DNA from: Victivallales bacterium | GTDB taxonomy: Bacteria > Verrucomicrobiota > Lentisphaeria > Oligosphaerales > Oligosphaeraceae | Length of the DNA stretch: 9,693 nt | Assembly (NCBI GenBank): GCA_017615955.1 | Contig: JAFZZD010000743.1 | Coordinates: forward strand, 1-9,693 | Reading direction: 5' to 3' | Part shown: positions 1-9,693 of the stretch, piece by piece | Position numbering within the stretch: the stretch's first letter is position 1 | How the letters are laid out: every line of letters starts with the position of its first letter | Program-made: the position numbers and the translations under genes | The notes under the pieces: generated by a model | Databases searched by the model: none | The model's input: only the letters and a program-made list of their open reading frames with translations | What the model was told of the DNA's origin: nothing

Positions 1-43
1 AGAGTGTGCCTATAAGACAATTAAATTAATTAATGGAGGATTT

Positions 44-239
44 ATGAGCCAGAAGATATCATTTCGTTTTTACAATGGCAAAGAGGTTCGTGCCGCCTGG
101 GACGAAAATGCAGGAACTGCTGCGCAATGCCCTGACTGACAAAATCGACGACCGAGAGATATTCATGAAAGGCATTGACTACTCATACTACTACGAGAGC
201 GATGACGCGGCCATGGAACCTTCGGATCTAAAAGCCTAG
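44..239 (+). pseudogene. Broken small gene: Bro-N-like N-terminus joined out of frame to an unknown tail
   Basis: A clear Shine-Dalgarno sequence (GGAGG, 35-39) precedes an ATG at 44. The first about 22 codons read as a natural protein start (FRFYNGKEVRAAWDE) that resembles, from memory, the beginning of Bro-N/phage antirepressor-type proteins, where a WWFSV-like stretch would normally follow. Instead this frame stops at 137-139 (31 aa). A second frame, open from 48 to the TAG at 237-239, has protein-like composition after about position 108 (MQELLRNALTDKIDDREIF, ending SDLKA). The simplest reading is that a deletion removed the middle of a gene, or fused two genes, and shifted the frame near 105-112. 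The tail is not recognised. The second frame could alternatively be a 54-aa ORF from an ATG at 75, but that start lacks a ribosome binding site. The Bro-N assignment is a recollection of family sequences, not an alignment. Confidence 0.45.
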
Positions 240-241
240 AA

Positions 242-341
242 AGGTAATTGCAAACCTATCGCAGCCAGCAGCGAACTATCGGAGCCGCTGGCTTTAGCCA
301 GCGGAAAAGCCTTGCAATGCCAATAGTTTTGCAATTACCTC
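242..341 (+). repeat. Palindromic interspersed repeat, copy A
   Basis: This is a 100-bp element with perfect 13-bp terminal inverted repeats (AGGTAATTGCAAA at 242-254 and its complement at 328-340). Near its centre is a 9-bp stem with a 2-nt loop (CCGCTGGCT 285-293, AGCCAGCGG 296-304). Its right 68 bases (274-341) match the reverse complement of 8256-8323 at 65 of 68 positions, so it belongs to a repeat family rather than being a chance hairpin. It ends 34 nt before the oxidoreductase start and could lie in that gene's leader. No target-site duplication is obvious. It encodes no protein. It could be a MITE-like or REP-like sequence. Confidence 0.85.
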
Positions 342-375
342 ATAAACATAAACAAATACCAAAGGAGAAATAACA

Positions 376-1443
376 ATGATCAAGGTTGCAGTTCTTGGAC
401 TTGGGCAAATGGGCGCTACACACGTTAAGGCGGCCCAGGCATCGCCATTCGTTTCACAAATATATGGCTATGAGCCTGACGAGGCGCGTAGAAAGGCCCG
501 TGCCGAAGAATTGAAGATCACACCGCTTTCGCTAGAGGAAATACTGGCCGACGACAGCATACAAATGGTGGACATAGCGGCCAGCAATGACGCGCACGTG
601 CCGCTGGCGAAGGCCGCCCTGCTTGCAGGGAAGAAAGTTCTGTGCGAGAAGCCAATGGGCACCACCCTTGCAGAAGCGCAGGAACTGATTGAAACAAGAC
701 AAAAGTGCAATGGCTTCCTTCAGATTGGCTTTGAACTTCACTATTCAAGAATGTACCAGATTATGAAGGAATGGATTGAGGCGGGGCTAATTGGCCGCGT
801 GGTGAATGTGGCAATCCGCTATTACTGCAGCGAATTCCACAGGGCGAACACCTGGCGCAGCAACTCGCCTGGCTCCTTCCTCATTCCAGAAAAACTGTCC
901 CACTATCTGGACTTGCAACGCTGGTACTTCGCGGGTCAGGAAAGCCCCGTGTCCGTGTATTCCCTCTCCGCGCCTAAGGTGGTACCATATTTCAACCACA
1001 GGGACAACCACCAGATTTCCATTAAGTTCAGCGAAGGTGGCATTGCCACGCTGAATTTCATCATGTATTCGGCCTCAAGATACCATAAGGACCCACTTCA
1101 GGAAATGCTGGCGCAGCAGGCACAGGACGGGCATTGCCTTTCGTGCCTCATCTGCGGCACGAAAGGCGTAATAGAATCGGACGTGTTCAACAGGAGAATC
1201 CGTCGCTGGCAATTCTCCATGGTGGAGAGCGGCTTGGAAAACCAGATTGTGGAAAACATCTCCTTCACGCCAGAGGAGGACAACTACTATTTCCACTGCG
1301 TAAAAAAGCAGAATCTGCGCGTCTATGAGCTGGTGGACAAGGGACTGCCGCCAGACGTGTCCGCTGAAGACGCGTTCGAGACCATGCGCCTCTGCTTCGC
1401 TGCCGAACAGTCCGAGGACAGCGGAGAAATTATCAAGCTATAA
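376..1443 (+). CDS. Gfo/Idh/MocA-family NAD(P)-dependent oxidoreductase
   Basis: This is a probable cytoplasmic dehydrogenase acting on a sugar, cyclitol or related hydroxy compound. The 355-aa product begins with a beta-alpha-beta dinucleotide-binding motif, GLGQMG (8-13), within VAVLGLGQMGATH. The family signature CEKPMG (90-95) carries the expected catalytic Lys92. The region around 175-185 (KLSHYLDLQRW) fits the substrate-binding helix where the family usually has a catalytic His/Asp. Length is normal for the family (330-400 aa). The start is well supported: AAAGGAG at 361-367 lies 8 nt upstream of the ATG. Substrate cannot be read from sequence. The gene is preceded by repeat copy A and followed 7 nt after its stop by a heptanucleotide repeat tract, so it is probably its own transcription unit rather than part of the downstream operon. 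No signal peptide is seen. Confidence 0.93.
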   Translation: MIKVAVLGLGQMGATHVKAAQASPFVSQIYGYEPDEARRKARAEELKITPLSLEEILADDSIQMVDIAASNDAHVPLAKAALLAGKKVLCEKPMGTTLAEAQELIETRQKCNGFLQIGFELHYSRMYQIMKEWIEAGLIGRVVNVAIRYYCSEFHRANTWRSNSPGSFLIPEKLSHYLDLQRWYFAGQESPVSVYSLSAPKVVPYFNHRDNHQISIKFSEGGIATLNFIMYSASRYHKDPLQEMLAQQAQDGHCLSCLICGTKGVIESDVFNRRIRRWQFSMVESGLENQIVENISFTPEEDNYYFHCVKKQNLRVYELVDKGLPPDVSAEDAFETMRLCFAAEQSEDSGEIIKL

Positions 1444-1450
1444 AATGCCA

Positions 1451-1580
1451 GTGGTCAGTGGTCTGTGGACTGTGGTCTGTGGACTGTGGACTGTGGTCTG
1501 TGGACTGTGGTCAGTGGACAGTGGTCAGTGGACGGTGGACTGTGGACGGTGGACTGTGGACGGTGGTCAGTGGACTGTGG
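1451..1580 (+). repeat. Heptanucleotide tandem repeat, GTGGWCN x 18
   Basis: Eighteen uninterrupted 7-bp units fitting GTGGWCN run from 1451 to 1576, followed by a partial unit GTGG. Position 5 is A or T and position 7 is A, T or G. Some neighbouring units pair into 14-mers (GTGGTCT/GTGGACT early, GTGGACG/GTGGACT late), suggesting duplication in blocks. The tract starts 7 nt after the oxidoreductase stop codon. Because 7 is not a multiple of 3 and the units make no stop codons, reading frames stay open through it on both strands, but there is no coding evidence. It is not a CRISPR array: there are no spacers. The + strand is C-poor with GG pairs every 7 nt. Confidence 0.95.
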
Positions 1581-1728
1581 TTCGTTAGTTGCCCGTAGGG
1601 AAAAGCGGCGGGTGGCAGTTTTGCCAAACGCACATCCGCATAATTGGGGAAAGTCATATTGCATTATTGTAGAAATTGGATAAATTAGCGTTCCCGATTG
1701 AGTACTTAACCCAAGAGGGCAATTAACA
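1581..1728 (+). promoter_or_regulatory. Spacer before the phosphoribosyltransferase-like gene; probable promoter region
   Basis: This 148-bp spacer is non-coding. It contains a weak 5-bp hairpin (TGGCA 1613-1617, TGCCA 1622-1626) with no T-run after it, so it is not a convincing terminator. From about 1650 the composition turns AT-rich. A possible sigma70-like pair is TTGCAT (1659-1664) and TAAATT (1681-1686) with a 16-nt spacer; the -10 match is poor. The ribosome binding site AAGAGGG (1713-1719) serves the ATG at 1729. A promoter for the downstream five-gene unit is expected here from gene layout, but its exact position is a guess. Confidence 0.3.
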
Positions 1729-2706
1729 ATGTTGAAACTGTTCAATTCAATTGACGACATCAGGCTTTATGACTGGGAACAGGAAAGCAACGTCCGCTGC
1801 ATTATTGCAAGTTCCCCGCAGACCAGAAGCATCTGCAATGACCCAAGAGTACTGGGCACGGACTACACCAGTCTGCTGAAGCAAGCATGTGCAGGCATCC
1901 TAAAGGCAGGGGATTTCAAGCTGACGGAGAACAACACCGCCGTCATAAACATATTGCGCGGCGGGCTTAACTTCGGGCTAAGGGAGGCGCTTTCAGAGGC
2001 ATTCGGATGGAAAGCCCACACCACCTGCTTCATATCCGCACAGAGGGCAAGGGACACCGCAGACCCGGAGGAATGGCACATCACGGAAAACGCATACAGG
2101 AAGGTATATTTCCCCGCCGATGCCAGACTGGTGATCGGGGACGTGGTCGCCACTGGCACCAGCCTAAAATACGCTCTTGGCGAACTGGTTAAAAGCGCTT
2201 TGAACGAAAATGTCGCGCTGAAAAGCATACTCTTCTTCACATACGGCGGCTATAAGGCGCTGGACATACTCAAGGACGTAGATGCGCAATGCAGGCAGAA
2301 CTTCCCTGACTATGAAAGCACAACACTGGTGTTTTTGGAAGGATGCTTTCTGGTGCCTGACCTGCATAGCAAGCTGAGCATACGGCTCACAGGCACCGAC
2401 TTGCTCAGGGGCGGTTCGGAAATGGCGCCAGAATTCATTGAATCCCAGTACGAGGATCCCGCATATCCGCTGGAGCGCTGCACGATCTACGATGCAGGCT
2501 CCCGTGCCTTCTGGATAAGGGAATATGCAAACGACGTGCTTAACTACTGGAAGCAGGTTCTGGACCTGGCGGCTTCTGGCGTAACATTCCTTGAATATCT
2601 GGAACAGCGCTTCCCAGAACTGGACGCAAGCCGCTTCCCCGATGGCATCACACTGAAGGAACTCGCACTGCGCCAGATCAACCGCATGCAGCCTTACGCT
2701 CTTTGA
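1729..2706 (+). CDS. Phosphoribosyltransferase-fold protein, uracil-PRT-like
   Basis: The 325-aa product has a type I phosphoribosyltransferase fold. The PRPP-binding loop reads LVIGDVVATGTSL (134-146), with Asp138 and Thr142-Gly143. Unlike most members it has a single acid before the TG pair, as in uracil phosphoribosyltransferase (DPMLATGGS type). Two further stretches also recall UPRT: INILRGGL (73-80) against the PILRAGL strand, and YDAGSRAF (254-261) against the C-terminal GDAGDR segment that contacts uracil. At 325 aa it is about 115 residues longer than ordinary UPRT, with an insertion around 175-250 and an extra helical C-terminus after about 265. The start has AAGAGGG 9 nt upstream. 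It sits 55 nt before codB, so a role in pyrimidine salvage or base sensing is plausible; activity is inferred, not shown. A nucleobase-binding regulator or another PRTase subfamily remains possible. Confidence 0.75.
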   Translation: MLKLFNSIDDIRLYDWEQESNVRCIIASSPQTRSICNDPRVLGTDYTSLLKQACAGILKAGDFKLTENNTAVINILRGGLNFGLREALSEAFGWKAHTTCFISAQRARDTADPEEWHITENAYRKVYFPADARLVIGDVVATGTSLKYALGELVKSALNENVALKSILFFTYGGYKALDILKDVDAQCRQNFPDYESTTLVFLEGCFLVPDLHSKLSIRLTGTDLLRGGSEMAPEFIESQYEDPAYPLERCTIYDAGSRAFWIREYANDVLNYWKQVLDLAASGVTFLEYLEQRFPELDASRFPDGITLKELALRQINRMQPYAL

Positions 2707-2761
2707 TTTTTCATTAAGTTAGAATAATACAACACACAACTACAAAAAAGGAAAAAGCAAA

Positions 2762-4033
2762 ATGTCTCAAGACTATGATTTTGCCCAGTCTCAAGTTCCA
2801 GAACAAAGCAGGAAAGGCTTCTGGGCCATGTTCGTCATCATGCTGGGCTTCACATTCTTCTCCGCCTCGATGTGGACTGGGCAGCAAATGGGCGTCGGCC
2901 TTACATTAGGAAAATTCGTTTCAGCAGTGCTGCTGTCCAATATCATCCTTGGCATCTACACATCTCTGCTGGCATTGATGGCCTCTGAAACAGGTCTTTC
3001 CGTGCACCTTCTTGCCCGCAACAGCTTCGGCGTGAAGGGCAGCTGGCTGCCAAGCTTCCTGCTGGGCTTCACCCAGGTCGGCTGGTTCGGCGTGGGCGTC
3101 GCCATGTTTGCCATACCAGTCCAGACATGGCTAAAGGCAAAGGGCATCAACTGCCCAATATGGATACCAGTGCTCATCTCCGGCATTGCGTTCACATCAT
3201 CAGCCTATTTTGGCATCAAGGCGCTTGCCATAATCTCCATTGTCGCCGTGCCGGCAATCGCGTTAGGCGGCGGCTTCTCGGCACTCAAGGTGTTCCTTGA
3301 CAACGAAGGTGCCTGGAACACACTCTGCAACTATGTCCCCAAGGCAGACATGGCAATCACACTGCCAGCGGCAGTGGCAATGGGCGTGGGTTCCTTCATA
3401 TCGGGCGGCACATGCACGCCTGACTTCGTCCGCTTCGCCGACAACAAGAGAACCGCCATCTCCACCACCGCAATCGCATTCTTCATCGGCAACTCCATCA
3501 TGTTCATCCTCGGCGCAGTGGGAGGCATGTTCTACCAGAAGAACGACATCTCCGAAGTCATGGTCATCCAGGGTCTGCTGGTTCCCGGCATCATCGTGCT
3601 GGGCCTCAACATCTGGACCACCAACGACAACGCCCTCTATACATCAGGACTTGGCCTGGCCAACATCACTGGCCTGCCCAAGAAGTACATGGTGCTTTTC
3701 AACGGTGCTCTTGGCACAATATTCGCGGTGTGGCTGTACAACAACTTCTGCGGCTGGCTCAGCATGCTGAACACCACCCTGCCCCCAATCGGCGCAGTCC
3801 TCATGGCGGACTATTTCTTCTTCAAGCGCAAGAACTACCTCGCAAAGGTGGAAATATCCTCTTCAGTCGTAAATGTCAAGGCGATAATCTCCTGGGCTGT
3901 TGGCGTGGCAGTGGCCAACTTCCTCAAATTCGGCATCACAGCCATCAATGGAATGATTGCCGCAGTCATTGTTTACACACTATTGTCAAAGCTGTGCCGC
4001 TGCAAGTGCAGCTGCTGCAAGACAGAAAAATAA
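2762..4033 (+). CDS. codB: Cytosine permease (NCS1 family)
   Basis: This inner-membrane transporter most likely imports cytosine by cation symport, as known for the NCS1 family. The 423-aa protein matches remembered E. coli CodB along its length: the start MSQDYDFAQSQVP, SASMWTG (34-40), GVKGSWLPS (90-98), VGWFGVGVAMFAIPV (106-120), the substrate-region motif GSFISGGTCTPDFVRF (210-225), GLNIWTTNDNALY (281-293) and LYNNFCGWL (325-333). About 12 hydrophobic segments are visible and length equals the family norm (about 419). The ribosome binding site AAAGGAAA lies at 2747-2754. An oddity is the cytoplasmic-type tail LCRCKCSCCK (411-420) with five cysteines, absent from E. coli CodB. In E. coli codA (cytosine deaminase) follows codB; here a secreted protein follows by 1 nt and no deaminase is in the window. 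Specificity for cytosine over another base is likely but not certain. Confidence 0.93.
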   Translation: MSQDYDFAQSQVPEQSRKGFWAMFVIMLGFTFFSASMWTGQQMGVGLTLGKFVSAVLLSNIILGIYTSLLALMASETGLSVHLLARNSFGVKGSWLPSFLLGFTQVGWFGVGVAMFAIPVQTWLKAKGINCPIWIPVLISGIAFTSSAYFGIKALAIISIVAVPAIALGGGFSALKVFLDNEGAWNTLCNYVPKADMAITLPAAVAMGVGSFISGGTCTPDFVRFADNKRTAISTTAIAFFIGNSIMFILGAVGGMFYQKNDISEVMVIQGLLVPGIIVLGLNIWTTNDNALYTSGLGLANITGLPKKYMVLFNGALGTIFAVWLYNNFCGWLSMLNTTLPPIGAVLMADYFFFKRKNYLAKVEISSSVVNVKAIISWAVGVAVANFLKFGITAINGMIAAVIVYTLLSKLCRCKCSCCKTEK

Positions 4034-4034
4034 G

Positions 4035-5558
4035 GTGGCTTCCAATCCCGCAATTCATCTACTCGCCAAGGCGACAACGCAGTTCATTCTGTTGCTTGCC
4101 TCGGCAGCCTGTGCCCTGGAAATTGCCTCCTGGACGCCTATGGAGTGGAAGGAGTACAAGCCCCTGCCAGTCGTGGAAGCGGGCAAGGACGGCTTTCACG
4201 TGGGCAAGGTAATTTCCAAAAGCGGCCTGGCCTTGAAGGCAGACCAGGGCATGAAGGCAAAGTCAGGAGACGACTTCATGCTGCGGGTCCAGGCAAAGGG
4301 CCATGGCGACGCCATACTCAAGCTGAAATACCTGGACAAGAAGGGGCGCTGGTGCGGATATTCAAAGCAAACCGTGCACATAGACCTTAAGAAAAACTGG
4401 AGTGAAATTGAATGCATCATTCCAGTGGAGAGCACTCTGCGCGGCGAGGTTGAAAACATACTGCCCATACTGGAACTCCACCAGGGTAGCGAGATTTTCC
4501 TGAAGGATTGCATTGCTGCAATTGAAAACAACGGCATTGCGTCAAGTCTGCCATTCCCCAGCGAATGGAACGTGTTCGTATTCAACCAGGACCTGGAGGA
4601 CCTGGACTTTCCACTGGACATGATCCCGGAGCAAATCCACACCAACCACTGGAAACTGATGCCACTGGAGGACGGCTTCATTAAGTTCAACACGGAATTC
4701 GCCAAGCCCAGAATACGCAACAACGCAGTTCTATATGCATACCTCTATTCCCCCGCCGAAATAGACTACACTATTGGTGCGGGGGCGGACTTCTACATGC
4801 GCATGTATGTAAACGGCAATTGCATACTTGACACCATGGAGAAGGGAAATTGCAAAGGCATCAATGATGTCTATTATGACAACTACAAAGTCAATGCCAG
4901 GCTTCACAAAGGCCAGAATCTCATCGTAATACATTTCCAGAGCGGCGTCAGCAAATATCCAAGATTGGCATTGTGCGGGCCTGACACGCTGAAGAACATG
5001 GAGAAGCAACTGGTGGTGGAGAATTATCTTGTCAAGGGCGACCCTTCCATGAAGACGGAGTTCATGCCGCCAGCCCAGCCTGGCATGAACAGCGAATACA
5101 ACTCAGGCCAGTCGATACATGCGAAATACAGGCCGTATTTATTCCTGGGGAACAAGGAGAAGGCCGTATTTGGACTGGGAATGAAGCTATACAGTCTTAG
5201 CAAAGAAGGATATGTGCTCTACAAGATAGGCAAGGACATTTCCATGAAAGTACGTTCCAATGTGCATACTGGCGGCCTTGTTGTTTCCGTGCTTCATAAT
5301 AAGCAGGAATTGAAAAACATCCGCCTTCCCCAGGAAATACTGCCATGTTGCCTGACCTTCGCAACTAATGGCAAAAGCTATTTCATAAACGCCCTGGGCA
5401 TCAACAACGAGAAACTTGCTTTTGCCACAGGGGGCCTGCCAGAGACTGTCAACATAAAAGTTGATATGAATGTTGACTTTGTGGGATGCTACGCAGTTGC
5501 CGGGGATTTCTTCACCGCAATCATGATGCAAGGTCAGAAAAAAGCCAAATTAAAATAA
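4035..5558 (+). CDS. Secreted multi-domain beta-sandwich protein of unknown function
   Basis: I do not recognise a named family. The frame is open from an ATG at 3957, but that would overlap codB by 77 bp and add 26 residues that are only a shadow of codB. A GTG at 4035, 1 nt after the codB stop, gives a 507-aa protein with a good signal peptide: Lys12, a hydrophobic core FILLLASAA (18-26) and a likely cut after ACA (27). SD support is poor, so translation may be coupled to codB. Residues about 50-165 look like a carbohydrate-binding-type beta-sandwich, ending EIFLKDCIAAIEN. Residues about 225-315 look like the jelly-roll seen in glycoside hydrolase accessory domains (GADFYMRMYVNGN, then HKGQNLIVIHFQSG). 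Residues about 360-500 are also beta-rich. No catalytic motif is evident. A periplasmic or extracellular role in binding a glycan is an inference, consistent with the isomerase downstream. Confidence 0.72.
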   Translation: MASNPAIHLLAKATTQFILLLASAACALEIASWTPMEWKEYKPLPVVEAGKDGFHVGKVISKSGLALKADQGMKAKSGDDFMLRVQAKGHGDAILKLKYLDKKGRWCGYSKQTVHIDLKKNWSEIECIIPVESTLRGEVENILPILELHQGSEIFLKDCIAAIENNGIASSLPFPSEWNVFVFNQDLEDLDFPLDMIPEQIHTNHWKLMPLEDGFIKFNTEFAKPRIRNNAVLYAYLYSPAEIDYTIGAGADFYMRMYVNGNCILDTMEKGNCKGINDVYYDNYKVNARLHKGQNLIVIHFQSGVSKYPRLALCGPDTLKNMEKQLVVENYLVKGDPSMKTEFMPPAQPGMNSEYNSGQSIHAKYRPYLFLGNKEKAVFGLGMKLYSLSKEGYVLYKIGKDISMKVRSNVHTGGLVVSVLHNKQELKNIRLPQEILPCCLTFATNGKSYFINALGINNEKLAFATGGLPETVNIKVDMNVDFVGCYAVAGDFFTAIMMQGQKKAKLK

Positions 5559-5562
5559 AACC

Positions 5563-6780
5563 ATGCAAAATGAAGGAAACATCATAAAGGGAGTGGAGAT
5601 ATTCGAAACCGTGTTCGGCGGCGATGGGGTGGCGCGTCTGACAGACGGCGAGATCCTGTTTGTGCCGTTCTCTGCGCCAGGAGATATTGCCACAGTGGAA
5701 ATCACCGAGGTCAAAAAATCATTCTGCCGAGGCGTGATACGCTCACTTGAAACGGCCTCGCCACTGCGTGACAAGCCAGTGTGCCCGTATTACGGGCGCT
5801 GCGGCGGCTGCGCTTACCAGCACCTCACCTCCGAGGCAGAATGCCAACAGAAAAGCGCACAGTTCAAAACCGTGATGCAACGCATAGGCAAGTTGCAGGA
5901 CTTACCGGAGCCAGAGGCAATGCAGACCTCTCCATTACGCTACGGTTATAGAAACAAGTTGCGTCTGGAGCCATTCCAGGGCACAGCCGGCCTAAGCTAT
6001 GGCTTCTGCGAAAGGGACAATGCAACCTTCTTCCCATTGAAACAATGCCCACTGGCAATGGACAGCATCAACAAGCGACTGCCTGCCGAAATACAGAAGG
6101 CAAAGGCAATGAAATACCCCAGGGGCAGGCATCCCTACACCCTCACACTAAGGACAGACTCACGGGGCGAGACTGCCTCCTATCTTGGACGCGCATCCGC
6201 GAAACTCAAATGGTTCAGGGAAAAACTGCTGGACAATGAGGTCAGTGTGCCAGTTGGCAGTTTCTGGCAGGTCAATCCAGCCACGGCGGACATGCTTTTC
6301 TCCACGCTTAAAAACTGGCTTCTTGAATATGAAAACCGCTCGCTCATAGACGCATACGCAGGCGTGGGCACATTCTCACTGGCCATGGGAAGCGCCTTCC
6401 AGTATCGCGCCGTAATTGAAAACGACGAGCAGGCAATCGCCGCCTCAAAATACAACCACGAACAACTTGGCTTGAAGGCACGCTTCTGCACAGGAAATAC
6501 AGAGGCACTCCTTGGAAACTGCCTTGCCAACGTGAAATGTTCGGAGACCACGGTCATACTGGACCCGCCACGCACGGGCTGCATGCCCAAAGTGCTGACA
6601 TCGCTGCTGGACTTCAAGCCATCCATCGTGGCGTACATTTCCTGCAACCCCACTACCCTTGCCCGCGACCTGAACACACTTTGCGCCAATGGCGCATACG
6701 TTCCAGTCAAGGCGGCAACCTTCAACATGTTTCCAGCCACAGCCCATTTTGAATCGGCTGTGCTTCTAAAAAAAACATAA
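5563..6780 (+). CDS. rlmD: 23S rRNA (uracil-C5)-methyltransferase, RlmD/RumA type (TrmA family)
   Basis: This is a SAM-dependent enzyme methylating C5 of a uridine in rRNA, and all expected parts are visible in 405 aa. The N-terminus (about 7-62) is a TRAM-like RNA-binding domain. An iron-sulphur cluster site has Cys74, Cys80 and Cys83 (CPYYGRCGGC) with the fourth ligand Cys162 (KQCPLA). SFWQVNPATADML (233-245) supplies Gln236. The SAM-binding motif is DAYAGVGTFSL (263-273), followed by LDPPRTGC (333-340) and the catalytic SCNPTTLARDL with Cys361. HFES near the end holds the general base Glu397. The family is secure; U1939 specificity (RlmD) rather than another site is inferred from the four cysteines. 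The start at 5563 is 4 nt after the preceding stop and lacks a clear SD, so re-initiation is likely. A housekeeping RNA enzyme inside a transport/sugar operon is unusual. Confidence 0.9.
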   Translation: MQNEGNIIKGVEIFETVFGGDGVARLTDGEILFVPFSAPGDIATVEITEVKKSFCRGVIRSLETASPLRDKPVCPYYGRCGGCAYQHLTSEAECQQKSAQFKTVMQRIGKLQDLPEPEAMQTSPLRYGYRNKLRLEPFQGTAGLSYGFCERDNATFFPLKQCPLAMDSINKRLPAEIQKAKAMKYPRGRHPYTLTLRTDSRGETASYLGRASAKLKWFREKLLDNEVSVPVGSFWQVNPATADMLFSTLKNWLLEYENRSLIDAYAGVGTFSLAMGSAFQYRAVIENDEQAIAASKYNHEQLGLKARFCTGNTEALLGNCLANVKCSETTVILDPPRTGCMPKVLTSLLDFKPSIVAYISCNPTTLARDLNTLCANGAYVPVKAATFNMFPATAHFESAVLLKKT

Positions 6781-6794
6781 CATCAGGAGAAAAA

Positions 6795-8168
6795 ATGCAG
6801 AACAGCAAAATCACCCCAAAAGCGGCATTTGTAGGCTTCGGTGAAGTCAATACACCTCCGGAATTCATTGCGCCACGCTGCAAAGTCGCAGCAGAAGAAC
6901 TGGCGAAAAGAGGAATAACAGTGATGCAGGCCCCCATCGTCAATGACGACCCGGCGGGCAATCTTGCAGCCGCGGCCACTGCCGCATTGAGCAAGATGGA
7001 CTTCGATGTGCTGGTGCTTTGCGTGGCAGGGTGGATACCCACCTGGGCGGTCATCCGCACAATCGAGCCTTTCAAGCATAAGCCAATGCTGTTGTGGGGA
7101 TTGAGCGGCTGGTATGAAAACGGCCATTTCGTCACTACCGCCGACCAGGCAGGCACAACAGCGCTGCGTCTGCCCCTCCAGCAAATGGGGTACAACTTCA
7201 AATACCTGGTGAACATGAAGGGCAGCGAACCACGCTACGACGAAGCGGCGGACTTCATCTTCGCAGCGGCAGCCTCCGCAAATCTTCAGAATGCAGTGGC
7301 GGGAATGTGCGGCTACAGGGACATGAGACTTTACGGCACACTCTATGAAGGCACCTCGCTGAAGACTGTCATCGGCCCTGAAATCGAGCATTTCGACCTG
7401 TATGAATTGCAGGAACTCTCCGATGCGTTGAGCGTGGACGAGGTGGAGGAGAAATGCGACTACATCAAGGCAAACTGGGAATTCACGCGCCAGCCACAGC
7501 CCGGCACGGTGGAGGCATCTGTCAGGCTGGCACTGGCAATGAGGGACAAAATCAACGACAGAAAATACCAGGCATTCTCATTCTGCGACGTGGACGGCGT
7601 AAAAAAACTGCTTAAGTTCGCCCCCGCCGGCGCACTCACTCTTCTCCATCAGCTGGTGGACATTCCCACAGTGCCTGAGAACGACTCTCACGGCGCAATC
7701 ACTCAGATGATCATGCACAAGCTGACTGGGCAAGTGCCCGCATACATGGAATTCTACGAATTCACCAAGGACAGCGCACTTATGGGCGTTCCGGACTATG
7801 TGCCGCCCTGCGTGGTGGACGGTAAGGTCACCGTCATGCCCAATGCCTTCGGCTCCTTTGGCGAGGGATTGCTGAATGTGTCCAAGGTGCGCACTGGCAA
7901 GGTCACGCTGGCACGCCTTGCATTGGTGGACGGCGAATATGTCATGCACGCCACATTGGCGGACGCAGTCACACCTGAAAAGTGGGAAGAGGCCGGCTGG
8001 GCACCGCCAGCCCCGCAGCTGCCCACACTGGAAATGAAGTTCCAGTACGATGCGGATGAGTTCATTCAGGATGTGATGGGACAGCATTACATTGTCTCAT
8101 ACGGCGACTGGCTGCAGCGCCTTGAAAACTTCTGCAACATGAAGGGAATCGCACTCATCCTGGCATAG
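6795..8168 (+). CDS. L-fucose/L-arabinose isomerase-like protein
   Basis: This 457-aa cytoplasmic protein resembles the metal-dependent FucI/AraA ketol isomerase superfamily. The N-terminal half is Rossmann-like (KAAFVGFGEVNTPPEF at 9-24; FDVLVLCVAGWIPTW at 70-84). In the C-terminal half, ENDSHGAITQMIMHKLTG (295-312) lines up with the family segment CExDxxGALTMLILQLLTG. YMEFYEF (317-323) takes the place of the second metal-ligand segment, which usually has Asp (E. coli FucI D361). GQHYIVSYGDW (429-439) supplies a candidate His431 for E. coli FucI H528. These correspondences come from motif memory, not an alignment. The start is firm: AGGAGA at 6785-6790 before the ATG, 14 nt after the methyltransferase stop. 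It is the last gene before a strong hairpin. Substrate is unknown; the divergent E319/E322 region means isomerase activity should not be assumed. Confidence 0.82.
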   Translation: MQNSKITPKAAFVGFGEVNTPPEFIAPRCKVAAEELAKRGITVMQAPIVNDDPAGNLAAAATAALSKMDFDVLVLCVAGWIPTWAVIRTIEPFKHKPMLLWGLSGWYENGHFVTTADQAGTTALRLPLQQMGYNFKYLVNMKGSEPRYDEAADFIFAAAASANLQNAVAGMCGYRDMRLYGTLYEGTSLKTVIGPEIEHFDLYELQELSDALSVDEVEEKCDYIKANWEFTRQPQPGTVEASVRLALAMRDKINDRKYQAFSFCDVDGVKKLLKFAPAGALTLLHQLVDIPTVPENDSHGAITQMIMHKLTGQVPAYMEFYEFTKDSALMGVPDYVPPCVVDGKVTVMPNAFGSFGEGLLNVSKVRTGKVTLARLALVDGEYVMHATLADAVTPEKWEEAGWAPPAPQLPTLEMKFQYDADEFIQDVMGQHYIVSYGDWLQRLENFCNMKGIALILA

Positions 8169-8200
8169 TAATAATTTCTTCCATCCATAGATTGACCAGA

Positions 8201-8245
8201 GCATAGGACTTATGTGGTATTTTATCCCATAAGTCCTAGCATTTT
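8201..8245 (+). terminator. Strong hairpin, probable terminator of the five-gene unit
   Basis: A perfect 11-bp stem (TAGGACTTATG 8204-8214, CATAAGTCCTA 8228-8238) with a 13-nt AT-rich loop can be lengthened by GC (8201-8202) pairing with GC (8239-8240) around one bulged A. It begins about 33 nt after the isomerase stop and is followed by ATTTT (8241-8245) and more AT-rich sequence. The T-run is short, so termination may be partial. The CATAAGTCC arm also resembles an interspersed repeat motif I recall from other bacterial genomes, so it may be a repeat acting as a terminator. Confidence 0.55.
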
Positions 8246-8255
8246 ATAATAATTT

Positions 8256-8344
8256 GAGGTAATTGCAAAACCATTGGCATTGCAAGCCTTTTCCGCTGGC
8301 TGAAGCCAGCGGCTCCGATAGTTTGCGGCTTGCGCGATAACCTC
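8256..8344 (-). repeat. Palindromic interspersed repeat, copy B (inverted relative to copy A)
   Basis: This 89-bp element can fold end to end with three nested stems. The outer stem is GAGGTAATTGC (8256-8266) with GCGATAACCTC (8334-8344), containing one mismatch and one wobble. The middle stem is GCAAGCC (8282-8288) with GGCTTGC (8327-8333), perfect. The inner stem is CCGCTGGCT (8293-8301) with AGCCAGCGG (8304-8312), perfect with a 2-nt loop. On the minus strand it matches copy A at 65 of 68 bases. The middle stem is not kept in copy A, whose left arm differs. Confidence 0.87.
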
Positions 8345-8374
8345 ATCTGTGAAAATCTGTGTCAATCTGTGGAT
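8345..8374 (+). repeat. Three 10-bp-phased ATCTGTG repeats
   Basis: ATCTGTGAAA, ATCTGTGTCA and ATCTGTGGAT follow one another at exactly 10-bp spacing, starting at the first base after repeat copy B and ending 11 nt before the transporter ATG. The 7-bp core is identical in all three. The reverse complement (CCACAGATT...CACAGAT) resembles a short interspersed motif that I recall from many unrelated bacterial genomes. Spacing of one helical turn could suit a protein-binding site, but that is inference. Confidence 0.8.
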
Positions 8375-8385
8375 CAAAAACATAG

Positions 8386-9619: not shown

Positions 9620-9693
9620 GTTCGCGCGGCCATGGGCCGCGCGTCAGGACGCGGGACTTCCATGCGCCAGAAAACGAGTTCGCGCGGCCAGGG
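9620..9693 (+). repeat. GC-rich palindrome, start of a repeated unit running off the window
   Basis: Five bases after the transporter stop is a perfect 9-bp stem, CGCGCGGCC (9623-9631) with GGCCGCGCG (9635-9643), and a 3-nt loop. The 13-mer GTTCGCGCGGCCA at 9620-9632 recurs exactly at 9678-9690, 58 bp later, where the window ends. This is either a tandem repeat or two arms of a larger element. The hairpin could also end transcription, but no T-run follows it. Confidence 0.7.

What the first reader, a model, noticed from the sequence alone, without database searches (positions are those of the whole stretch)
242..8344. Two near-identical palindromic elements in inverted orientation bracket the gene cluster
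Bases 274-341 match the reverse complement of 8256-8323 at 65 of 68 positions. Both copies keep the perfect CCGCTGGCT/AGCCAGCGG stem, with one of the three differences falling in its loop. Copy A has perfect 13-bp terminal inverted repeats; copy B folds with three nested stems. The six genes between them would be inverted by recombination across the pair, and elements of this kind can also act on mRNA. I cannot name the family; a MITE or REP/RAYT-type sequence is possible.
Basis: partly seen in the sequence, partly recalled or inferred. Interest (0 to 1): 0.7.

Follow-up and report, generated by a model that had tools for sequence, protein, structure and literature searches.

The report
Two decayed copies of miniature transposon
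The two mirror-image palindromes are old copies of a small non-coding jumping element of rumen and gut bacteria, probably moved by a separate transposase enzyme, and they most likely flank this stretch of genes by chance rather than forming a gene switch.

Summary
In detail: 274-341 matches the reverse complement of 8256-8323 at 65 of 68, and the pairing extends to 79 nt at 92%. The elements are 241-341 (A, 101 bp) and 8256-8344 (B, 89 bp, right end damaged). [quoted passage not shown] A sister genome (G022, 87-90% DNA identity) holds 28 core stems; four genomes of the order hold 36-123 exact ends each. Of 64 complete elements, 35 have identical 4-bp flanks (shuffle mean 1.7, max 6). One element sits inside another with a clean empty site. 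Elsewhere in the phylum the same ends bound 1.6-kb elements encoding a DUF772 + DDE_Tnp_1 transposase, between IS1182 and IS5 and below both NCBIfam cut-offs; no homologue was found in the four genomes near the host. REP/RAYT is not supported. The bracketing looks accidental: G022 lacks copy A and its flanks lie 5 kb apart there. This is a new MITE family of a known kind. Many members are near-perfect hairpins, down to 44-50 bp, some with target duplications.

The parts
241..341 (-). MITE copy A (101 bp), complete; terminal repeats 242-254 / 328-340 perfect over 13 bp; core stem 285-304
   Evidence: flanks taga / ataa (1 of 4), so no target duplication left
8256..8344 (+). MITE copy B (89 bp), left end intact, right end shortened by 12 bases; core stem 8293-8312
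   Evidence: flanks attt / atct (3 of 4)
285..304 (.). core stem-loop CCGCTGGC-4nt-GCCAGCGG of copy A
   Evidence: 28 exact sites in G022, 0 in G001/G002/G021
8293..8312 (.). core stem-loop of copy B
1..240 (+). remnant of a Bro-N/Fic-domain gene left of copy A (5' and 3' pieces only); intact 300-aa homologue in G022 (L331 1117-2019)
   Evidence: Fic over the Pfam cut-off; Bro-N 25.5 of 25.6 bits
376..1443 (+). Gfo/Idh/MocA oxidoreductase gene; bracketed by chance
   Evidence: G022 C646 87% DNA, 93% protein
1449..1585 (+). heptad tandem array (GTGGWCN); the window-to-G022 collinearity breaks just after it (1633-1651)
1729..2706 (+). phosphoribosyltransferase-like protein gene (weak UPRTase match, below cut-off)
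2762..4033 (+). NCS1-type permease gene (Transp_cyt_pur)
3957..5558 (+). ORF without Pfam match (533 aa from TTG; true start probably later)
5563..6780 (+). TRAM + tRNA_U5-meth_tr rRNA/tRNA methyltransferase gene
6795..8168 (+). fucose-isomerase-like gene (Fucose_iso_C match, 25.4 of 29.3 bits, below cut-off)

Best explanation
A and B are two old insertions of one non-autonomous transposable element (MITE) about 101 bp long. The element carries only what a transposase needs, its ends GAGGTAATTKCAAAAC, around a species-specific palindromic core (CCGCTGGC stem), and encodes nothing. A DDE transposase of the DUF772 + DDE_Tnp_1 type (IS1182/IS5-like), supplied in trans by a 1.6-kb element with the same ends, is inferred to cut it out and insert it with a 4-bp staggered cut. 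Shown: shared ends, copy number in a sister genome, target duplications in the family, one nested insertion, and transposase-bearing elements with the same ends in other genomes of the phylum. Inferred: that this transposase moved the window's own copies, that the two copies are independent insertions, and that their opposite orientation is chance. Copy A marks a breakpoint: its flanks are 5 kb apart in the sister genome and carry no target duplication, so a deletion, insertion or recombination at that place, in one lineage or the other, is likely.
For: Pair 65/68. G022 has 48 matches to B, best E 1.2e-30, 94%. Exact ends GAGGTAATTNCAAAAC: G001 52, G002 100, G021 123, G022 36 sites, and 0-2 in the other 43 of 47 genomes of the order; reversed-pattern control 0 in all 47. 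4-bp target duplication exact in 35 of 64 complete elements (65 found, L190 dropped because its contig ends there), shuffles mean 1.7, max 6; length 5 gives 2, lengths 6-10 give 0. Nested element in L053: outer flanks TAGT/TAGT, inner CATA/CATA; the outer reads as one 81-bp element when the inner is lifted out, judged by eye against the 154-bp elements. Ends GAGGTAATTNCAAAA in 76 of 387 phylum genomes, with single reversed-pattern control hits in 7. Transposase-bearing elements: L268 315-1920, 1606 bp, both ends 16/16, 377 aa; L267 157-1775, 1619 bp, ends 15/16, 367 aa; L289 879-2388, ends 14/16. All 5 near-full-length homologues found have at least one end within 2 mismatches, and 3 of 5 have both. 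A described IS1182 element, ISPse1, is 1653 bp with 16/16 ends and 4-bp repeats (PMC3281130, table passage). G022 lacks A, with its flanks at C646:2006 and C646:7098.
Against: No transposase homologue in any of the four element-rich genomes of the host's order (0 of 4 at E<=0.001), nor in G303, G395, G261 and G063, which hold 197, 128, 85 and 17 ends; G164 and G363 (105 and 82 ends) give only broken fragments. These are fragmented assemblies, but the helper may be gone or different. Neither window copy keeps an exact target duplication (A 1 of 4, B 3 of 4). 29 of 64 elements lack an exact 4-bp duplication. None of the transposase-bearing copies shows its own target duplication: L268 ends with its contig, and the flanks of L267 and L289 differ. 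No whole genome is held for the window, so copy number in the host itself is unknown. Copy B's site could not be compared in G022, whose DNA gave no match there.
Confidence: 0.9

Rival explanations
1. REP-type palindromes spread by a RAYT (Y1 HUH transposase).
For: Y1_Tnp genes are present in all five genomes tested, 11 loci; the core is a short GC-rich palindrome with internal tandem arrays in some copies.
Against: 4-bp target duplications and long perfect terminal repeats, which HUH transposition does not make (recalled). None of the 11 Y1_Tnp loci is bounded by these ends; only L185 has a complete element, about 800 bp away from the gene, and L180 has two poor end-like sites (4 mismatches). 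The core is absent from G001, G002 and G021, which share the ends.
Confidence: 0.04
2. A designed pair: an invertible cassette or regulated unit in which the inverted copies flip or co-regulate the six genes.
For: The copies are in opposite orientation and nearly identical over 68 bp; homologous recombination between them is conceivable. Two overlapping promoter-like matches on the minus strand (8269/8268 to 8241) use the left end of B, though promoter-like matches in the window as a whole (10) are close to shuffles (7.2, sd 2.4).
Against: No recombinase among the seven proteins scanned. The genes are not a conserved unit: in G022 the Gfo gene is followed by a different gene, and the phosphoribosyltransferase gene is preceded by other sequence. 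In the fetched loci of G001, G002 and G021 only neighbouring pairs are kept. Copy A is absent from G022.
Confidence: 0.03
3. Conserved RNA structures (mRNA-stabilising or terminator hairpins) kept by selection at gene ends, not transposons.
For: A lies just upstream of a ribosome-binding site and B downstream of a stop codon; the core stem is 96.8% paired across 32 copies.
Against: The core stem has no compensatory change (0 of 8 pairs); the end helix has some (6 of 19 pairs), but the whole structure does not exceed shuffles on any of five measures. No Rfam match at gathering scores. No terminator-like site listed within A or B. Target duplications show mobility of the family.
Confidence: 0.03

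Closest known systems
IS1182-family insertion sequences (ISPse1, IS1272)
   Same: ISPse1: 1653 bp, 16/16 ends, 4-bp direct repeats (PMC3281130, table passage). The partner elements here: 1606 and 1619 bp, 16-bp ends, single transposase; best NCBIfam hit IS1182.
   Different: Scores 96.1 and 84.9 bits against a cut-off of 270; transposases of 367-377 aa where the model is 488 long. IS1272 is reported to replace stem-loops without target duplications (PMC5678879, abstract and passages), whereas 35 of 64 elements here keep an exact 4-bp duplication.
IS5-family insertion sequences
   Same: NCBIfam IS5_4 and IS5_3 are the next hits.
   Different: At most 74.9 of 140 (IS5_4) and 66.9 of 110 bits (IS5_3), below both cut-offs.
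BrickBuilt MITE of Porphyromonas gingivalis (PMC4596501, abstract and outline seen)
   Same: A MITE carrying an internal tandem array (23-nt unit there; 16-, 22- and 29-bp units in G022 copies L120, L134, L122 here, read by eye and from the spacings).
   Different: Different phylum; there the array makes up the element, here it is an occasional expansion.
REP sequences with RAYT
   Same: Short, GC-rich, palindromic, many copies (general features recalled).
   Different: Target duplications and transposon-type ends here; no RAYT association.

Membership tests
Bacterial MITE (non-autonomous DNA transposon) | Terminal inverted repeats | tested here: met
   13 bp perfect in A; family ends of 16 bp, pairing on for 17-33 bp with up to two mismatches
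Bacterial MITE (non-autonomous DNA transposon) | Target site duplication | tested here: met
   Family: exact 4 bp in 35 of 64. Window copies themselves: A 1 of 4, B 3 of 4 bases, so not met individually
Bacterial MITE (non-autonomous DNA transposon) | Short and non-coding, many copies in a genome | tested here: met
   44-200 bp; 36-123 exact ends per genome in four genomes; host genome itself not held
Bacterial MITE (non-autonomous DNA transposon) | Ends shared with a transposase-bearing element | tested here: met
   L268, L267, L289; in other genomes of the phylum, not found in the host's close relatives
IS1182 family (partner transposase) | NCBIfam NF033551 above cut-off 270 | tested here: not met
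   96.1 and 84.9 bits; so described as IS1182/IS5-like, not filed
IS5 family (partner transposase) | NCBIfam IS5 models above cut-off | tested here: not met
   best 74.9 of 140 and 66.9 of 110 bits
REP/RAYT | Y1 transposase gene flanked by the repeats | tested here: not met
   11 loci in 5 genomes, none bounded by the ends
Invertible cassette | Recombinase gene at the locus | tested here: not met
   No recombinase by Pfam among seven proteins
Invertible cassette | Both orientations observed in one strain | not testable with these tools
   No reads and no host genome held

The most novel reading that the evidence does not exclude
The family moves as a folded hairpin. Eighteen minimal members (44-59 bp) in three genomes are little more than two ends joined by a small loop. 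Some carry 4-bp target duplications (exact in 5 of the 16 whose flanks were scored, shuffle mean 0.5, max 3; within one mismatch in 11 of 16, shuffle mean 2.6, max 7). An identical 50-bp hairpin with the same internal base change sits at places with different flanks in G022 and G002. Longer members with different cores also fold as continuations of the end helix in several cases, though not strongly in the window's own subfamily. Ends 46 bp apart on stiff duplex DNA are hard to bring together (recalled), so a transposase that works on an extruded or single-stranded stem-loop would explain why palindromic cores arise repeatedly, in line with the stem-loop model proposed for IS1272.
Probability: 0.2. 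Interest if true: 0.7.

Novelty: new member of a known kind. Interest (0 to 1): 0.35.

Why it matters
It removes a false lead (gene switch) and replaces it with a defined mobile family whose ends occur in 76 of 387 sampled genomes of this phylum (some of the single-hit genomes may be chance, since the reversed pattern gave single hits in 7), with a candidate partner transposase. Its copies can mark rearrangements in rumen Lentisphaeria-type genomes. The 44-50-bp hairpins offer an unusually small test substrate for whether a DDE transposase can act on a folded element.

Tried and rejected
Autonomous element inside the element-rich genomes near the host: a 1319-bp spacing of ends in G002 (L102) encloses a dephospho-CoA kinase gene and no transposase; a 1531-bp spacing in G021 (L142) is two separate short elements. 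Forty further regions around unpaired ends, 37 in G021 and 3 in G002, gave mostly short elements with a partner end within 260 bp; the rest were lone ends, some at contig ends. Thirteen ORFs, twelve beside six of the lone ends and the one in L102, were scanned: 8 have no Pfam match and 5 match non-transposase families; further ORFs there were not scanned. DDE_Tnp_1 gives 7 matches in G002, G021 and G022; none is bounded on both sides by these ends within 4 mismatches. L135 has different terminal repeats and one element end beside it; the ends of the other six were not worked out.

Exact 40-base core pattern in IMG/VR: 0. First genome searches with 100 bases of A in G001-G004: no match at E<=0.001; of these, G001 and G002 share the ends only. 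Rfam: nothing at gathering scores. Solved structures by sequence for the transposase: none at E<=0.001. Covariation for an RNA role: none above shuffles. The interior fold is not significant for the window's own subfamily (z -1.05 and -1.23) although it is for seven of eleven representatives (-2.9 to -11.2), and two more were weak or unstructured (-1.9, +1.4). One end-like site with 3 mismatches lies at G022 C646:2955, not at the position of copy A.

Papers: searches for MITE with IS1182, Lentisphaer- and Victivallales terms and general MITE terms. Titles and abstract starts listed: 5 of 5, 0 of 0, 10 of 923, 15 of 67, 12 of 21, 2 of 2. None of those listed describes this family; this covers only the held library and only the listed part.
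Full report
Observation. The claim holds: 65 of 68 identities, 79 nt at 92% in the ungapped extension, longest exact inverted word 21 against 11-13 in 20 shuffles. A is 241-341 and B is 8256-8344; B lacks 12 bases of the 101-base form at its right end.

Host. No genome is held for the window. The fucose-isomerase-like protein's best relatives are rumen Victivallales MAGs at 72% identity.

Copy number and spread. With B as query, G022 gives 48 matches down to E 1.2e-30; the other 28 of the 29 genomes in that search give nothing better than E 0.03, although several of the weak matches in G021 and G001 are the bare ends. The exact end GAGGTAATTNCAAAAC occurs 52, 100, 123 and 36 times in G001, G002, G021 and G022, 1-2 times in three others, and 0 times in the remaining 40 of 47 genomes of the order; the reversed pattern gives 0 in all 47. 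At phylum level 76 of 387 genomes, drawn from a larger group, hold GAGGTAATTNCAAAA; the reversed pattern gave a single hit in 7, so some of the one-hit genomes may be chance. The core stem CCGCTGGCNNNNGCCAGCGG has 28 sites in G022, one each in two other genomes, and none in G001, G002 or G021. So the ends are shared and the cores differ between species.

Mobility. I collected paired ends chosen from the listings (not a random sample): 65 elements, 64 after dropping L190, whose contig stops at the element. Exactly matching 4-bp flanks: 35 of 64; 500 shuffles of right flanks give mean 1.7, max 6; length 5 gives 2 and lengths 6-10 give 0. By genome: G021 14 of 18, G001 10 of 14, G002 8 of 22, G022 3 of 10. 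The duplicated sites lean to A at the last base (25 of 35). In L053 an intact element (flanks CATA/CATA) sits inside an older one (flanks TAGT/TAGT); lifting out the inner one leaves an 81-bp element that lines up by eye with the 154-bp elements. In the window subfamily, L157 keeps an exact duplication (ATCA), while many other copies have lost one end. The alignment used 32 of 41 hits: five duplicate rows, the two array rows of L120, L340 and L335 were left out, and some rows were trimmed; it shows two core variants.

Partner transposase. Pairs of ends 1.6 kb apart in G268 and G315 bound single long ORFs of 377 and 367 aa with DUF772 and DDE_Tnp_1 domains. L268 has both ends 16/16; L267 has both 15/16. 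A third, L289, has ends at 14/16 and the same domains. Among 20 genomes searched with the L268 protein, 8 match, several only by broken fragments. None of the four element-rich genomes near the host matches, and neither do G303, G395, G261 and G063, which also hold many ends (17-197), so the helper there is lost, too divergent, not assembled, or of another kind. NCBIfam's best hit is IS1182, then IS5, all below cut-off. The described IS1182 element ISPse1 (1653 bp, 16/16 ends, 4-bp repeats; PMC3281130, passage) has the same anatomy. 4508 of the 7997 candidates scored in the large protein set are related at E<=0.001.

The bracketing. In G022 the Bro-N/Fic gene whose remnant lies at window 1-240 is intact and is followed by about 5 kb of other genes before the Gfo gene; copy A is absent there. 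Downstream of Gfo in G022 is a different gene, and upstream of the phosphoribosyltransferase gene is different sequence, so collinearity also breaks just after the heptad array, between 1633 and 1651. In the fetched loci of G001 and G002 the methyltransferase-isomerase pair is kept, and in G002 and G021 the phosphoribosyltransferase-permease pair. The six genes are thus not a conserved cassette in what could be compared. Which state is ancestral is not known; a deletion beside A in the window lineage or an insertion in G022 both fit. B's site could not be tested in G022.

Mechanism and the bolder reading. Standard reading: cut-and-paste by a trans-acting DDE transposase with a 4-bp stagger (inferred from the duplications). 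The bolder reading rests on the minimal hairpins (18 sites in three of four genomes) and on cores that fold strongly (z -2.9 to -11.2 in seven of eleven representatives chosen by me, some of which share a core; window subfamily -1.05 and -1.23, others -1.9 and +1.4). Against it: short hairpins could arise by deletion within palindromes after insertion, which would keep the duplication; the identical 50-bp hairpin with a shared base change at two places with different flanks (L149, L212) argues for movement of the short form but does not prove it. The IS1272 stem-loop model (PMC5678879, abstract and passages) is a precedent in a related family.

Verdict. New member of a known kind (MITE), ordinary with respect to the bracketed genes; moderately interesting for its wide ends, candidate partner and very small hairpin members.

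Noticed in passing
window 1449-1585: Heptad tandem array (GTGGACT/GTGGTCA type) after the Gfo gene; similar arrays match at many other places in G022 and a few in G001, G002 and G021. Collinearity with G022 breaks right after it.
   Followed up: partly
window 8204-8238: Strong hairpin TAGGACTTATG...CATAAGTCCTA just after the isomerase gene (DNA fold z -6.29); could be another dispersed palindrome or a terminator.
   Followed up: partly
window 1-240: Remnant of a Bro-N/Fic-domain gene, intact in G022 (L331 1117-2019).
   Followed up: partly
window 8345-8378: AATCTGTG-type repeat directly after copy B; matches G022 C646 at 85-88%; a similar CTGTGTATTCTGTG motif forms part of the core of the 191-bp elements of G021.
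   Followed up: no
window 9620-9693: GTTCGCGCGGCCATGG-type repeat pair 58 bp apart at the window end.
   Followed up: no
L122, L134, L120 (G022): Element copies with internal tandem arrays of 29-, 22- and 16-bp units made from the core stem.
   Followed up: partly
L105 343-496 (G002) and L108 312-465 (G001): Same 154-bp element with near-identical flanks in two species: probably a shared old insertion.
   Followed up: no
L103 361-717 (G002): Element ends spanning a stretch that looks like a tRNA gene by eye; not checked with ARAGORN.
   Followed up: no
window 3957-5558: ORF of up to 533 aa with no Pfam match, between the permease and methyltransferase genes.
   Followed up: no
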